A stretch of 64,000 bases of DNA from Flavobacteriaceae bacterium CG2_30_34_30 (GTDB taxonomy: Bacteria; Bacteroidota; Bacteroidia; Flavobacteriales; Flavobacteriaceae): NCBI GenBank assembly GCA_001873105.1, contig MNYN01000060.1, positions 62,001-126,000 of the forward strand, written 5' to 3'. Under the pieces are notes generated by a model. It did no database searches. It had not been told where the DNA came from and worked only from the letters and a program-made list of their open reading frames with translations. Position 1 is the first letter of the stretch. Every line of letters begins with the position of its first letter. Shown here one piece after another: positions 15,924 through 23,330 of this stretch. The translations under genes were made by a program, and so were the position numbers.

Positions 15924-17327
15924 ATGAAAAACCTATTTATTTTTTTATTTCTAATTTTTATTACAAGCCCTATTTTTTCACAAAATGAAAGTCAGCAAGA
16001 TTCAATAATGCTGCGTAAAATTTTTAACGAAGCCTTACTTAACGGAAAAAGTTATGACTGGCTAGAACAACTTTCTAATACCATAGGAGGTCGTTTATCC
16101 GGCTCTTTAGAAGCAGAAAGAGCAATTAACTTTACCAAAGAAGAATTAGAAAAACTAGGTTTAGACAAAGTGTGGCTGCAACCGGTAATGGTTCCAAAAT
16201 GGGTAAGAGGAGTGCCTGAATATGCCTATATTGAAACCACAACAGGAATTACCTCTGTTACAAATATTTGTGCTTTAGGAGGTTCTGCTCCAACTCCTAT
16301 TGGTGGTTTAAAAGCGGAAGTAATTGAAGTTCAAGGAATTGAAGACTTGGCGAAATTCGGAAAAAGCAATATTCAAGGAAAAATTGTTTTCTATAATCGA
16401 CCCATGGATCCAACAAAAATTCAAACTTTTGAAGCGTATGGCGGTTGTGTAGATCAACGATATTCCGGCGCTATGGAGGCCTCAAAATATGGTGCAGTAG
16501 GAGTAGTAGTGCGCTCCATGAGTTTAAAAATTGATGATGAACCACATACCGGAACTATGACCTATGGCGATTTACCATTAGACCAACGAATACCAGCTGC
16601 AGCAATTAGTACACAAGGAGCAAACTACCTGAGTAGCATGTTAAAACTTCAACCAAAAACCCAATTTTATTTCAATCAAACTTGTATTGCTTATCCGGAT
16701 GTAGAATCGTTTAATGTAATAGGTGAAATAACCGGAAAAAAATATCCAAATTCCTATATCGTGGTAGGCGGACATTTAGACTCGTGGGATTTAGGTGATG
16801 GCTCACACGATGACGGTGCAGGATGTGTACAGTCTATGGAAGTCTTGCGGTTGTTTAAAAACCTTGAGTACAAACCAAAACATTCTATTCGTGTGGTGCT
16901 GTTTATGAATGAAGAAAACGGTTTACGAGGGGCAAAAAAATATGCTGAAGTGGCTGATAGAAATAAAGAAAAACACATTTTTGCATTAGAAAGTGATGCC
17001 GGAGGGTTTAGCCCTCGAGGATTTTCTTTTGATTGTTCTACAGAAGACTTAAAACAAATTGTAAACTGGAAGCCATTGTTTGAACCTTATTTAGTTCACT
17101 TATTTACCCAAGGAGGAAGCGGTGCAGATGTTTCACCTTTGAAAAAAAAGGGCAATGTTATGGCAGGATTGAGACCCGATTCACAACGCTATTTTGATTA
17201 CCACCACGCACATACCGATACTTTTGATAAAATAAATAAAAGAGAGTTAGAATTGGGAGGAGCTGCCATGGCAAGTTTGATTTATTTGTATGATACGTAT
17301 GGCACAGTGAATGATGCTGTGAAATAG
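15924..17327 (+). CDS. Secreted M28-family metallopeptidase (carboxypeptidase Q-like)
   Basis: This 467-residue exported protein has a signal peptide (residues 1-20, ending SPIFSQ). A protease-associated (PA) insert follows around residues 130-250, then an M28 zinc peptidase domain. Zinc ligands are visible in GGHLDSWDLGDGSHDDGAG (His284 and the Asp in DDGAG), MNEENGLRGAK, ESDAGGF and the C-terminal YHHAHTDTFDKI. The order matches plasma glutamate carboxypeptidase (CPQ)-like dipeptidases. It likely acts in the periplasm or outside the cell on small peptides. The gene is followed by a strong terminator hairpin. Confidence 0.9.
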   Translation: MKNLFIFLFLIFITSPIFSQNESQQDSIMLRKIFNEALLNGKSYDWLEQLSNTIGGRLSGSLEAERAINFTKEELEKLGLDKVWLQPVMVPKWVRGVPEYAYIETTTGITSVTNICALGGSAPTPIGGLKAEVIEVQGIEDLAKFGKSNIQGKIVFYNRPMDPTKIQTFEAYGGCVDQRYSGAMEASKYGAVGVVVRSMSLKIDDEPHTGTMTYGDLPLDQRIPAAAISTQGANYLSSMLKLQPKTQFYFNQTCIAYPDVESFNVIGEITGKKYPNSYIVVGGHLDSWDLGDGSHDDGAGCVQSMEVLRLFKNLEYKPKHSIRVVLFMNEENGLRGAKKYAEVADRNKEKHIFALESDAGGFSPRGFSFDCSTEDLKQIVNWKPLFEPYLVHLFTQGGSGADVSPLKKKGNVMAGLRPDSQRYFDYHHAHTDTFDKINKRELELGGAAMASLIYLYDTYGTVNDAVK

Positions 17328-17423: not shown

Positions 17424-20400
17424 ATGAAAAATATTTTCATTATAGCTTTTTGTTGTTTAAGCAATTTTTTATTTGCTCAAAACTTATTGGAAAGCAGAAA
17501 ATCAAGCAATTATACTTATTTATTTAAAATTTCTGATAAGGAAGCAGAAAAAATATATACCTCAAATAAGGTTGAAATTGATGAAAGTTATTTTCATACT
17601 GTAATTGATTCTTTTCCAACTTTTGCAAATTTTGATGAAAAATTAGACCCCGGACATTATTTAAAAACTTATTCAGACAAGAATATTCAAAAAGTTGAAA
17701 TAACAACTGTTCAAAACATGGATGTTTTCCTATTGAATAATTATCAAGATTTAGTCATTCAGCTTTATGATTTAAATGGAAAAATTATCAAAGATGCCGA
17801 GGTAAAAGTTAAAAACAGGTCAATTAAATACAATAATGAAGTTGAGGCCTATTTTCATAGAAAATCCAATAAAAAAGGATTATTACAAGTAACTTATGAT
17901 GGAACCACAGCATTTTATTATTTAGATAGAAATTATAATAATTCATCTTTTAAAAGGATCTCAAGAAAAGTAGTTTACGGAATCCCATTAAGATATGTTT
18001 GGACTCCTATAGAGTTTGCAGCAAAGGTGCCATTTGATGCAGTTAAGTCAATTTCTGATGGATGGTCACAGGGTACAATAAGAAGAGCAGAAGAATTTTT
18101 TGTAAAGACTTATGAAAAAGTGGCATGTATTTTTGATGATTATTATTGTAATAATTATAACAGAAGCTATGATGTTAAATTCTTAGGTTATTTAGTTTTT
18201 AATAAACCTAAATATAAACCCAATGATACCGTAAAATTTAAAAGTTTTTTAGTAACTAAAAAAGGAAAACTACTTAGTAAACCGCTTACAGTCTTTCTTC
18301 AAGGCAATGCGCAAAAGAATAAGTTGGTTCAACTAAACCCTTATGATAAAGGAGGATATGAATTTAGTTTTTTTCTACATGACTCTTTAAAACTCAGACT
18401 CGACACTGATTATACAATTTTTCTTGAGGATGCCAAAGAAAATAATGTGATGTCAGGAAATTTTAGATATGAAGACTATGAATTGGCCAAAAACAATCTG
18501 CAATTAAGGCTTGCTCAAAAAGACCACTATAACAACAAACCATTTGAAATTTATATAAAAGGAACAGATGAAAATGATTTGGTACTTCAGGATGCAAGAG
18601 TCCAGGTTTTAATGCGATTAAAAATAGCTTTGAAATATTGTGAAGACAAATTATTTATCCCAGATACCCTTGGTTTTATCGAAAAAAAATTAGAACCAAT
18701 TTCAGAAACAAAAATTGACATTTCAGATTCTTTATTTCCCCCTGCAAATTTTGAATATGAACTTGTTGTAAAGCTTTTGACATCTGACAACGAACTGATT
18801 TCAAAAACTGAAAATGTTTTATACTACCACTTAAGCGAAAAACTGGACGCTGAATTAATCAAGGACTCTATTAAGTTTGTATACAGAAAAAATGGGTTAT
18901 CAGCAAACAAAAATATTCAGGTTTACGGCAATGATAATTTTCAGAATAAAACCTTGATTTTTGAAGGAGAGTCACCTTTACAACTCAAACTAATTCCCTT
19001 TTACTCTTCTTATATAGCACAATCGGATGATTTGGAAATGGAATACAATGTTTCTGACAAACCTTCTTTAATTCAGGTTACCGCTTCAAGAACAACAGAT
19101 TCAATAAAATTAGAAATTTATAATCCCCGAAACCTGTTTTTTAACTACAACACCTATTTGAAAAACAAATTGATTTCAACGGGTTATTCAAACGAACTGA
19201 AAATTTCTAAATCTCTTAATTCGCTTCAAAACTATCAGGTTTCCATTCAATACATCTGGGGAGGAGAAGTTAAAAATGAAGATTTAACCATACCATTAAA
19301 TGATAAAAGCCTGAATATTGAGGTAAACCAGCCAACTTTAGTCTATCCCGGTCAGAATTCTAAAATTGAATTGAAAGTAACAGATTATGAGGGAAATCCT
19401 GTTGAGGAAGTTGACCTTACAGCATATTCAATGACCAAAAAGTTTAATTACAATCCACCCACATTGCCGTATTTAGGCAAAAACAGAAAAAACCGTAACA
19501 TCATAAATACATTTAGTTTAAACAGAAAAAAACTAAATTCACCAGAGGAGAGCCTAATAAATTTTGAGTACTGGAATACTCTGGCTGGTATAGATTCCAT
19601 TGAATATTATAAATTTTTATATCCGAACAACGAAATTTATCAATTTTCCTATACCCCAAAAGATTCCATCACACAATTTGCACCCTTTGTATTTGCCAAT
19701 GGCGAAATGTTGCCCATACACGTGATTTATGTGGATAACAAACCAGTATATTTTAGTTGGTCAACAAATGAACAACCTTATTCTTTCCATGTGAGCAGTG
19801 GTTATCATCAGGTTAAACTCAGGACAACAAAAAAAATAATCACTATTGACAGTTTGTTTTTCCCTGAAAATAAAAAACTCATTCTTAGTATAGATGAATC
19901 TATTTCAAAAAAAGGAATTGAAATCAAGGAAGTAAAAAAGGAATTGAGTGAGCAGGAGCAAAGGACACTTTATAACTATGTTTTTCCGTACCGTAATAAT
20001 TTTAATAACAAGTTTGCATACATTGAAAATGGCAGAAATATTCAACTTTTGTCCCCCAATTTTAGACACATCTCCAACCTTCTGGCAGGACCCGTTTCCG
20101 GAACAATTGTTTTTAGAACGCTTGACGAAACTACAAAGGTATTTAGTCATGAACCTTATTTTGAATATGATTTTCAACCGGATTTGTTAAAAATGCGAAC
20201 TTTTGGCAAGCCAAAATTCCCTAGTTACTTAGGCAAGTACAACAAAAATAACGATTTAGATGATTTGGTGCTAACACCTGAAAAAATAAATGAGTTATAT
20301 CAAAATTCCATTCAATCATCAAGAACTACTAATAACTATTTTCCCAATCCAGATAAAACTACATCAGGTTTTGGCAGGTTGTTGATAGAAATTGAAGACG

Positions 20401-23330
20401 AAGAAAATTTAAAGGAACTTCCTATAAATATTCTTATTTTCAGTAATGACGACCCGGAATTTGTTAGGGTCTATCCTGGAAATTCCCGTTTGATTCATCA
20501 ATTAAGTGAGGCTAATTACAGACTGGTTTTCTTTTATGCTGATAAAAAGTACCATGCTGTGGACTCCTTAGACATACTATCTGATGGCTTGAATTTTTTA
20601 CGGGTTAAAAAACCTGATGAATTACTGTCAGATGGTTTTAGTTCAGCCATTGATGAAATTATCAAAAATGCTGTAATAACAGAAAAGATTGACGATAAAA
20701 GTAATAAACTGGATTTAAACCGAATCAATATAGCGCATCAACAACAGTATTTTTATGGTGAAAGTACAATAAGAGTTGAAGGAATTGTTACTGATGCTAC
20801 AGGTTTACCATTCCCTGGAGTTAATATTGTTGTTAGAGGAACTTCTTTTGGCACACAAACTGATTTTGATGGTAATTATTCTATACTTCTCAATGCAGGT
20901 GACGTATTGGTTTTTAGTTTTATTGGTTTTGAAACTCAAGAAGTACTTCCAACAAAAAATATATTAGATATTCAAATGGAAGGAGCAGGAGAAGAACTTT
21001 CTGAAGTTGTTGTAACAGGGTATTCCGTTTCAAGTGAGAAAAGAGTATTAGGTTATGCGATTTCAAATCTAACAAATGAAGTTTTTTTAAATAATGAATT
21101 AGAAGGTAAATTGGCAGGATTTGCAGTAGGACTTGTTAGCAACTCCGCTACTCAACTTTCAATTAGGGGATACAACTCTCTTTCTAGTGATAGCCAACCG
21201 CTTTATATCGTCAATGGACAAGTTTATACAGGTGATTTTGCACAATTAAATATTGACCAAATCATTTCTTTAAATGTACTTAAAGGAACAGCAGCAACCG
21301 AATTGTATGGTTCCATGGGTATCAATGGTGTAATCATTATTGAATTAAACGATATACTTTTATCAACTTTACAAGACAAAGCAGCAGATTTTGATGATAC
21401 ATTTTATGAAAGTGCACTATCAGCCGGTTCATTAAGACAAAATTTTTCTGATTATGCCTTTTGGCAACCTAAGCTCAAAACAGATAAAGAAGGTAAAGCA
21501 AGCTTTGAAACAACCTTTCCTGATGATATAACAAATTGGGAAACGTTCTATTTAGCAATGAATGGCAACAAACAAACCGGGCAGGTTAGAAAGTCGATAA
21601 AATCTTATAAACCATTGATGGCGCAATTGGCCATACCAAGATTTTTAGTAGAAAACGATACCACTTATGCCATTGGAAAAACGCTTAATTACACACCGGT
21701 AGAACAGGAAGTAACCATTACCTATGAAGTAAATGACGTAGTTCAGTTTTCAAAAAAGGAGCATTTTGAAAATGCTATAATCGATACATTATTGATTACT
21801 GCAAAAGACTCCATTTCAGTAAAATACATCATTGAAAAAGAAGATGGTTATTTTGACGGTGAAATGCGGAAAATTCCGGTATATCCAAAAGGCCTTTATA
21901 AAACGTATGGTAATTTTTATGTTTTGGAAAAGAATGAAACAATCGATTTATCATTCAATCCTGAATATGGAAAAGTAAACCTTTATGCAAGGGCAGATGT
22001 TTTGCAAGTTCTTGATGAAGAAATCAATCATGTAATCAAGTATAGATATTTGTGTAATGAACAAGTGGCATCAAAACTCAAAATGCTTTTGATGCAGAAA
22101 AAATTGGCAGACTATCAAAACATCCCTTTTAAAAACAAAAAAGATATAGATAAACTGATTTCTCTATTATTAAAAAATCAGAAAAATTCAGGAGTATGGG
22201 GTTGGTGGAGAGATTCAAAAAATAATTATTGGATTAGCCTTCATGTGTTAGAAGCACTTGCTTGGGCGAAAAAGGATGGTTATTCATTTGTTTTAAACAT
22301 TACTTCAACTACTCAGGATATGATTAGGCGTTTAGAAAATTCTTCAAATTTTGATGAAACTTACAGAATTTTAAAAGCTTTAAAACTTCTGGATGCAAAA
22401 GTTGATTATAAAAATTATATAGAAAAGTTAGAAGAAAAAGAAAAAATTAATTTCAATGAGCGTTTAAAACTTACAGAACTTCAACAAATTCAACGGATGA
22501 ATTATCAACTGGATTCAATTATTAAAAACAAGCGCACAACACTTTTCGGAAATGTTTATTTTTCAGGCGAAAAAAACATCTCAAATCTTTTGAATAATAA
22601 CATTCAAAATACAATCTTGGCTTACAAAATTTTAAAGGCTGACACCCTTGATTTTAATGCTGAGCTTTCAAAAATGAGAGACTACTTTTTTGAAAACAGA
22701 AATACTGGATATTGGAGAAATACATTTGAATCGGCTCAAATTATGGAAACAATAATCGATGATTTTATTCAAAGAGATTCTAAACCAGAAACACCAAAAC
22801 TGATTCTTGAAGGCGACATAACAAGTGTTATTGAAACTTTCCCATTTGAAATGATTGTTGAACCCAATCAGAATATATCAGTTTTTAAAACTGGGGATTT
22901 TCCCATTTACTTCACAAGTTATCAATCTTTTTGGGAAAGTAACCCCTCAGAAAACAAAGGAGAATTTGAAATAAGTACTCAATTTGGGACAAACAATCGT
23001 TCGGTATTAAAAGGAGGACAGGAAGTGACACTTTTGGTCAAGGTAAAAATCGAGAAAGATGCAGAATATGTAATGATTAATGTACCCATTCCAGGAGGAT
23101 GCTCTTATGGAGACAATCGCAATAAAAGCAGGTATGAATCTCACAGAGAAAATTTTAAAAATGAAACAACAATCTTTTGTGAAAGCCTTCCTGCTGGAGA
23201 GCATACTTTTGAAATAAAATTAATCCCAAGATATTCAGGAAATTATACTCTTAATCCCGCAAAAATTGAATTAATGTATTTTCCCACATTTAATGCAAAC
23301 AATACACTTGAAAAAATAAAAATAGAGTAA
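17424..23330 (+). CDS. Alpha-2-macroglobulin-like protein with inserted carboxypeptidase-regulatory and SusC-like plug domains
   Basis: This 1968-residue exported protein has a signal peptide (residues 1-19, ending FLFAQ) without a lipobox, so it is not an obvious lipoprotein. Macroglobulin-like domains fill the first half, with an MG2-type strand GYLVFNKPKYKPNDTVKFKS near residue 252. Residues about 1114-1190 form a carboxypeptidase-D regulatory-like domain (VEGIVTDATGLPFPGVNIVV). About 1195-1310 form a SusC-like TonB plug (LSIRGYNSLSSDSQPLYIVN) with no barrel after it. Then come the MG7-like segment (FWQPKLKTDKEGKASF, near 1350), CNEQ at 1544-1547 (the place of thioester CGEQ), an alpha-helical thioester-like domain (GVWGWWRDSKNNYW) and a C-terminal receptor-binding-like domain. 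The start at 17424 puts the signal peptide first. Confidence 0.85.
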   Translation: MKNIFIIAFCCLSNFLFAQNLLESRKSSNYTYLFKISDKEAEKIYTSNKVEIDESYFHTVIDSFPTFANFDEKLDPGHYLKTYSDKNIQKVEITTVQNMDVFLLNNYQDLVIQLYDLNGKIIKDAEVKVKNRSIKYNNEVEAYFHRKSNKKGLLQVTYDGTTAFYYLDRNYNNSSFKRISRKVVYGIPLRYVWTPIEFAAKVPFDAVKSISDGWSQGTIRRAEEFFVKTYEKVACIFDDYYCNNYNRSYDVKFLGYLVFNKPKYKPNDTVKFKSFLVTKKGKLLSKPLTVFLQGNAQKNKLVQLNPYDKGGYEFSFFLHDSLKLRLDTDYTIFLEDAKENNVMSGNFRYEDYELAKNNLQLRLAQKDHYNNKPFEIYIKGTDENDLVLQDARVQVLMRLKIALKYCEDKLFIPDTLGFIEKKLEPISETKIDISDSLFPPANFEYELVVKLLTSDNELISKTENVLYYHLSEKLDAELIKDSIKFVYRKNGLSANKNIQVYGNDNFQNKTLIFEGESPLQLKLIPFYSSYIAQSDDLEMEYNVSDKPSLIQVTASRTTDSIKLEIYNPRNLFFNYNTYLKNKLISTGYSNELKISKSLNSLQNYQVSIQYIWGGEVKNEDLTIPLNDKSLNIEVNQPTLVYPGQNSKIELKVTDYEGNPVEEVDLTAYSMTKKFNYNPPTLPYLGKNRKNRNIINTFSLNRKKLNSPEESLINFEYWNTLAGIDSIEYYKFLYPNNEIYQFSYTPKDSITQFAPFVFANGEMLPIHVIYVDNKPVYFSWSTNEQPYSFHVSSGYHQVKLRTTKKIITIDSLFFPENKKLILSIDESISKKGIEIKEVKKELSEQEQRTLYNYVFPYRNNFNNKFAYIENGRNIQLLSPNFRHISNLLAGPVSGTIVFRTLDETTKVFSHEPYFEYDFQPDLLKMRTFGKPKFPSYLGKYNKNNDLDDLVLTPEKINELYQNSIQSSRTTNNYFPNPDKTTSGFGRLLIEIEDEENLKELPINILIFSNDDPEFVRVYPGNSRLIHQLSEANYRLVFFYADKKYHAVDSLDILSDGLNFLRVKKPDELLSDGFSSAIDEIIKNAVITEKIDDKSNKLDLNRINIAHQQQYFYGESTIRVEGIVTDATGLPFPGVNIVVRGTSFGTQTDFDGNYSILLNAGDVLVFSFIGFETQEVLPTKNILDIQMEGAGEELSEVVVTGYSVSSEKRVLGYAISNLTNEVFLNNELEGKLAGFAVGLVSNSATQLSIRGYNSLSSDSQPLYIVNGQVYTGDFAQLNIDQIISLNVLKGTAATELYGSMGINGVIIIELNDILLSTLQDKAADFDDTFYESALSAGSLRQNFSDYAFWQPKLKTDKEGKASFETTFPDDITNWETFYLAMNGNKQTGQVRKSIKSYKPLMAQLAIPRFLVENDTTYAIGKTLNYTPVEQEVTITYEVNDVVQFSKKEHFENAIIDTLLITAKDSISVKYIIEKEDGYFDGEMRKIPVYPKGLYKTYGNFYVLEKNETIDLSFNPEYGKVNLYARADVLQVLDEEINHVIKYRYLCNEQVASKLKMLLMQKKLADYQNIPFKNKKDIDKLISLLLKNQKNSGVWGWWRDSKNNYWISLHVLEALAWAKKDGYSFVLNITSTTQDMIRRLENSSNFDETYRILKALKLLDAKVDYKNYIEKLEEKEKINFNERLKLTELQQIQRMNYQLDSIIKNKRTTLFGNVYFSGEKNISNLLNNNIQNTILAYKILKADTLDFNAELSKMRDYFFENRNTGYWRNTFESAQIMETIIDDFIQRDSKPETPKLILEGDITSVIETFPFEMIVEPNQNISVFKTGDFPIYFTSYQSFWESNPSENKGEFEISTQFGTNNRSVLKGGQEVTLLVKVKIEKDAEYVMINVPIPGGCSYGDNRNKSRYESHRENFKNETTIFCESLPAGEHTFEIKLIPRYSGNYTLNPAKIELMYFPTFNANNTLEKIKIE

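What the first reader, a model, noticed from the sequence alone, without database searches (positions are those of the whole stretch)
17424..23330. Macroglobulin-like protein with inserted SusC-type plug and variant thioester motif CNEQ
The sequence shows a carboxypeptidase-regulatory domain plus TonB-plug domain (residues about 1114-1310) placed just before the MG7-like segment, with no beta-barrel. This is close to where the bait region lies in alpha-2-macroglobulins. CNEQ (1544-1547) sits at the thioester position normally CGEQ, followed by a thioester-domain-like helical region. Macroglobulins trap proteases; the plug may dock the protein to an outer-membrane partner or act as bait. The combination is unusual and its function is not known to me. 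The signal peptide lacks a lipobox, unlike many bacterial macroglobulins.
Basis: partly seen in the sequence, partly recalled or inferred. Interest (0 to 1): 0.78.

Follow-up and report, generated by a model that had tools for sequence, protein, structure and literature searches.

The report
Protease trap carrying TonB-receptor plug
This gene encodes a bacterial relative of the blood protease trap alpha-2-macroglobulin in which the slot that proteases normally cut holds a piece of an outer-membrane nutrient transporter, including the short peptide that docks to the TonB motor; the same fusion recurs across Bacteroidota and suggests a protease trap linked to the TonB system.

Summary
The 1968-aa secreted protein is an alpha-2-macroglobulin (A2M) relative holding a SusC-type NTE (1118-1197), Ton box (SEVVVTG, 1193-1199) and plug (1230-1303), with no barrel. 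The insert ends about 30 residues before the alpha'NT segment (R1338, F1341), so it fills the cleavable bait slot, where complement C3 carries its ANA domain. CNEQ sits in the thioester column (ECAM CLEQ), but CxEQ with x = N/A/S/L/V is ordinary in Bacteroidota. The fusion is not unique: of 61 A2Ms analysed, 18 have the full module and 7 a partial one, in two deep clades; a third clade has none. Where the plug is lost, the Ton box is often kept: 18 of 47 plug-less linkers score above a threshold where 0.05 are expected. My reading is a soluble periplasmic thioester protease trap whose bait slot was taken over by a SusC module, the Ton box being kept because it docks to TonB. The anatomy is shown; TonB docking and protease trapping are inferred. 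AlphaFold models were too poor to use. I found no paper describing the architecture in the open-access library.

The parts
17424..23330 (+). whole gene, 1968-aa macroglobulin-type protein
   Evidence: open frame with signal peptide; Pfam and NCBIfam domains
17424..17477 (+). signal peptide, residues 1-18, no lipobox
   Evidence: read by eye from the translation; related proteins have similar N-termini
18186..18386 (+). MG2-like domain, residues 255-321
   Evidence: Pfam E 6e-4, below the curated cut-off
19131..19418 (+). last MG/BRD-like strands before the insert, residues about 570-665
   Evidence: weak profile match to the BRD of clade F, P-value 0.0017, probability 15%
19440..20759 (+). region of unknown fold, residues about 673-1112, conserved in clade W
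   Evidence: alignment of seven clade W proteins; no significant Pfam or PDB match
20775..21014 (+). SusC-type N-terminal extension (NTE, CarbopepD_reg_2), residues 1118-1197
   Evidence: Pfam E 2e-14; SusC/RagA model E 4e-51 over 1117-1307
21000..21020 (+). Ton box SEVVVTG, residues 1193-1199
   Evidence: same motif as Bt1763 DEVVVTG; position
21111..21332 (+). TonB-receptor plug, residues 1230-1303
   Evidence: Pfam E 1e-7; module profile score 202 bits over 1118-1306
21435..21446 (+). alpha'NT R1338-Q-N-F1341
   Evidence: aligned with RKNF of Xenopus ovomacroglobulin; R732/F735 spacing from PMC9352918
21456..21722 (+). A2M domain PF00207 (post-bait MG domain), residues 1345-1433
   Evidence: Pfam E 6e-16
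22041..22064 (+). thioester motif YRYLCNEQ, residues 1540-1547 (CNEQ 1544-1547)
   Evidence: aligned with ECAM CLEQ; tyrosines at -4 and -2 conserved
23004..23285 (+). bMG10 / C-terminal MG domain, residues 1861-1954
   Evidence: Pfam E 4e-13

Best explanation
A soluble periplasmic alpha-2-macroglobulin-type protease trap whose cleavable bait slot holds a SusC-derived NTE-Ton box-plug module. A protease that cuts the exposed module breaks the chain N-terminal to alpha'NT; alpha'NT then retracts, the thioester domain swings out and CNEQ reacts with the protease. The Ton box is kept because it docks the macroglobulin to TonB, placing the trap at TonB/outer-membrane transporter sites. Shown by sequence: A2M membership, position of the module, thioester column, and Ton-box retention beyond chance. 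Inferred: protease trapping, TonB binding, and the link between them.
For: Thioester column, pocket tyrosines and C-terminal MG domain match ECAM. The module ends just before the alpha'NT R..F pair, so a cut in it would give the break in the chain that triggers human A2M (PMC9352918). The Ton box is intact in all seven clade W proteins, including L063, which lost its plug body. 18 of 47 plug-less linkers of clade F hold a Ton box above a threshold with 0.05 expected; in 8 close relatives its first six columns are 86% identical against 34% for other linker columns. The strict motif occurs once in each of 23 of 61 proteins and never in the plug-less clade. The genome has four TonB C-terminal domain matches. 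Ton-box mutants of Bt1763 fail in levan growth (PMC7782687).
Against: No binding, localisation or protease data. More than half of the 47 plug-less linkers have no clear Ton box, so it is not essential to the family. At least three relatives have lost the thioester cysteine. Linkers share ancestry, so motif counts are not independent. No usable structure shows whether the Ton box is exposed.
Confidence: 0.42

Rival explanations
1. Decoy bait: the module mimics the flexible, protease-sensitive periplasmic face of SusC transporters, so a protease that attacks those transporters cuts the macroglobulin and is trapped. No TonB binding is needed.
For: The module is in the bait slot. The plug of Bt1763 was found cleaved by proteolysis, and its Ton box region is flexible (PMC7782687). 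Other SusC motifs, LxGRVAGVxI among them, are also kept in plug-less linkers.
Against: Any flexible sequence can serve as bait, so decoy function alone does not explain why the Ton box is the best conserved part of plug-less linkers.
Confidence: 0.28
2. Inert remnants: the bait slot tolerates insertions, and pieces of the abundant susC genes were inserted once or several times and are decaying without a function of their own.
For: The slot varies greatly in length, content and motif order. Two clade W plugs (L064, L066) group with a transporter plug of the window's genome rather than with the other A2M plugs.
Against: Only the N-terminal 200-odd residues of SusC are found, not random stretches. 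The Ton box is conserved well above the rest of the linker and above chance.
Confidence: 0.17
3. Force-triggered trap: TonB pulls on the Ton box, draws alpha'NT out of its channel and exposes the thioester without a protease cut.
For: The Ton box lies upstream of the alpha'NT trigger in the same chain. TonB is thought to disrupt or extract transporter plugs (PMC7782687).
Against: In human A2M a break in the bait is essential and elongating the bait does not trigger it (PMC9352918). There is no direct evidence here.
Confidence: 0.06

Closest known systems
Bacterial alpha-2-macroglobulins (E. coli YfhM/ECAM, Salmonella SaA2M)
   Same: MG domains, post-bait A2M domain, thioester domain with CxEQ and pocket tyrosines, C-terminal MG domain
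   Different: ECAM has a disordered bait and is anchored to the inner membrane (PMC4498604); here a SusC module and a further region of unknown fold fill the slot, and there is no lipobox
Complement C3/C4/C5 with ANA domain
   Same: a folded domain stands in the bait slot just before alpha'NT (PMC9352918)
   Different: the domain is a SusC NTE-plug, not an anaphylatoxin; no evidence that it is released as a signal
SusC/RagA TonB-dependent transporters
   Same: NTE, Ton box and plug in the same order
   Different: no beta-barrel, so not a transporter
M56 (BlaR1-like) proteins of Bacteroidota with plug fragments
   Same: plug fragments outside a transporter
   Different: mostly the C-terminal half of the plug, no clear Ton box seen; different host protein

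Membership tests
Alpha-2-macroglobulin superfamily | post-bait A2M domain (PF00207) and C-terminal MG domain | tested here: met
   PF00207 E 6e-16, bMG10 E 4e-13, both over cut-off
Alpha-2-macroglobulin superfamily | CxEQ thioester motif in a thioester domain | tested here: met
   CNEQ aligned with ECAM CLEQ by profile; pocket tyrosines conserved
Alpha-2-macroglobulin superfamily | alpha'NT R..F segment after the bait | tested here: met
   R1338 and F1341 aligned with RKNF of Xenopus ovomacroglobulin
Alpha-2-macroglobulin superfamily | formed thioester and covalent capture of proteases | not testable with these tools
   needs purified protein
Alpha-2-macroglobulin superfamily | full set of N-terminal MG domains | tested here: inconclusive
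   only a sub-threshold MG2 match; structure models unusable
Inner-membrane-anchored bacterial A2M (ECAM type) | lipoprotein anchor (lipobox) | tested here: not met
   signal peptide MKNIFIIAFCCLSNFLFA|Q has no lipobox, read by eye
SusC/RagA TonB-dependent transporter | NTE, Ton box and plug | tested here: met
SusC/RagA TonB-dependent transporter | C-terminal beta-barrel | tested here: not met
   model match stops at position 202 of 981; the rest of the protein is macroglobulin

The most novel reading that the evidence does not exclude
Bacteroidota have a class of TonB-coupled macroglobulins: periplasmic thioester traps that bind TonB through a Ton box in the bait slot, so that capture or triggering is tied to the TonB motor or to the state of TonB-dependent transporters.
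Probability: 0.3. Interest if true: 0.85.

Novelty: new variant of a known kind. Interest (0 to 1): 0.62.

Why it matters
The role of bacterial macroglobulins is still poorly settled. A TonB-docking peptide kept in the trigger region of a macroglobulin family spread across Bacteroidota would connect protease defence to TonB-dependent nutrient uptake, and it can be tested by binding and mutation. It would also be a bacterial counterpart to the ANA-for-bait substitution of complement, and an example of a plug and Ton box working outside a transporter.

Tried and rejected
CNEQ as an odd variant: rejected. A conserved gene neighbourhood: none beyond an M28-like peptidase gene near both the window gene and L001. 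Distance between the DG and VLK motifs as a mark of barrel-free plugs: no difference (p 0.66), and the pattern was unreliable. Plasmid carriage: no match. Literature on macroglobulin plus Ton box, plug or SusC: none found in seven searches. A sequence match for residues about 673-1112: nothing significant. L136 as a short barrel-free plug protein: it looks like a transporter gene split by a frameshift. AU test of clade W plugs as one clade did not finish.

Full report
OBSERVATION. The ORF at 17424-23330 (+) encodes 1968 residues with a signal peptide that lacks a lipobox. Pfam places CarbopepD_reg_2 at 1118-1197, Plug at 1230-1303, A2M (PF00207) at 1345-1433 and bMG10 at 1861-1954, with a sub-threshold MG2 at 255-321. 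NCBIfam matches residues 1117-1307 to the first 202 of 981 positions of SusC/RagA with E 4e-51, and the best PDB hits for this stretch are SusC homologues and RagA. The barrel is absent. It is the only PF00207 protein found in the 2.5 Mb genome, which holds 17 other plug matches.

THIOESTER. A 23-sequence profile of the C-terminal 640 residues finds ECAM/YfhM, Salmonella A2M, CD109, human A2M and complement proteins, and aligns the CNEQ column with ECAM CLEQ. The tyrosines at -4 and -2 that line the ECAM thioester pocket (PMC4498604) are present: YRYLCNEQ. Homologues that keep the motif read [YF]-x-[YHF]-x-C-[NASLVIMT]-E-Q, so CNEQ is ordinary.

POSITION. The segment after the plug, SLRQNF, aligns with RKNF of Xenopus ovomacroglobulin. 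This is alpha'NT, whose conserved R732 and F735 (human numbering) lie three residues apart, as R1338 and F1341 do here; it threads a channel between MG2, MG3 and the linker and retracts when the bait is cut (PMC9352918). The SusC module therefore ends about 30 residues before alpha'NT, in the slot of the bait region or, in complement, the ANA domain. Upstream, a weak profile match (P-value 0.0017, probability 15%) puts the last MG/BRD strands near residues 570-665. Residues about 673-1112 are conserved in the window's clade but match nothing known.

DISTRIBUTION. In 395 Bacteroidota genomes sampled evenly, 122 matched the C-terminal part of the window protein and 137 matched that of a flavobacterial homologue. 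I compared 61 A2M proteins. A tree of the post-bait region gives three groups: clade W (the window, L001, L062-L066), clade F (41 proteins) and a plug-less group of 13. The root is at the midpoint for drawing only and the joining branches are long, so relations between the groups are unsure. A profile of the module finds it complete in 18 proteins (6 in W, 12 in F) and partial in 7; 9 more in F keep the Ton-box segment without the plug body, and 27 were scored none (L068 and L069 counted). Clade W is sparse: five genomes of the phylum sample besides the window's own, plus L001 and a shortened remnant in G045. None of four other members of the window's genus gave a match.

ORIGIN OF THE PLUG. 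In a tree of A2M plugs with transporter plugs from the window's genome and five others, 16 of 18 A2M plugs form one group (support 87/86). L064 and L066 fall beside a transporter from the window's own genome, L159 (96/82). One clade of all A2M plugs is not rejected (p-AU 0.36). Support is modest; shared change after loss of the barrel could also draw them together.

TON BOX. The Ton box of Bt1763 is DEVVVTG, and deleting or mutating it gave growth defects like a SusD deletion (PMC7782687). The window has SEVVVTG, and all seven clade W members keep a Ton box, including L063, whose plug body is lost. A strict pattern occurs once each in 23 of 61 proteins (123,539 residues) and in none of the 13 plug-less-group proteins; the positions all lie in the slot. 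Of 47 plug-less linkers, 18 exceed the 0.1% quantile of shuffled linkers, with 0.05 expected. A second SusC motif, LxGRVAGVxI, is also enriched (10 against 0.05), but its matrix rests on only three transporter sequences. In 8 close relatives, chosen because they have the motif, the first six Ton-box columns average 86% pairwise identity against 34% for the other linker columns; that choice favours the Ton box, so one search is the fairer test. These linkers share ancestry, so the counts are not independent events; the tree forces at least four changes of the Ton-box-only state.

MECHANISM. I commit to a soluble periplasmic protease trap with a SusC-derived bait module whose Ton box docks to TonB (confidence 0.42). 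The main rival is a decoy that mimics the protease-sensitive periplasmic face of SusC transporters (0.28). Inert remnants of insertions (0.17) and a force-triggered device (0.06) are less likely. Location in the periplasm is inferred from the signal peptide and from the lack of other sorting signals seen by eye.

KNOWN AND NEW. It meets the sequence criteria of the A2M superfamily that could be tested and fails the barrel criterion of SusC transporters, so it is an A2M, not a transporter. Seven searches of an open-access library found no description of the architecture; subscription papers and domain databases were not covered, so the architecture may be catalogued somewhere. I rate it a new variant of a known kind.

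LIMITS. Both AlphaFold models failed (mean pLDDT 39.6 and 32.8), so the plug's fold and the accessibility of the Ton box are untested. At least three relatives have lost the thioester cysteine.

Noticed in passing
L172, L175, L182, L183, L184 (M56 loci): M56 (BlaR1-like) proteins of several Bacteroidota genomes carry one or more copies of the C-terminal half of the SusC plug (PLxxVDG...VLK...YG..G.NGV), outside any barrel.
   Followed up: partly
G000:C56:33630-34622 (L173, L223): In the window's own genome one 453-aa frame holds both an M56 peptidase match and a TonB C-terminal domain match.
   Followed up: no
window 15924-17327 and L001 1195-2574: An M28-like peptidase gene, 39% identical between the two, lies near the macroglobulin gene in both the window and L001.
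   Followed up: no
L004 and L067 (G045:C121): A relative keeps only a 395-aa frame that joins a stretch near residue 500 to the C-terminal 300 residues, so about 1100 residues are missing.
   Followed up: partly
L088, L108, L110: The thioester cysteine is replaced (NNEQ, SAEQ) although the module or Ton box is kept, so some family members cannot form the thioester.
   Followed up: no
L071, L072, L093 and similar linkers: In plug-less linkers SusC motifs appear in permuted order (IRGxxS, then LSGRVAGV, then Ton box), unlike SusC (Ton box, GRVAGV, IRGxxS); how this arose is unexplained.
   Followed up: partly
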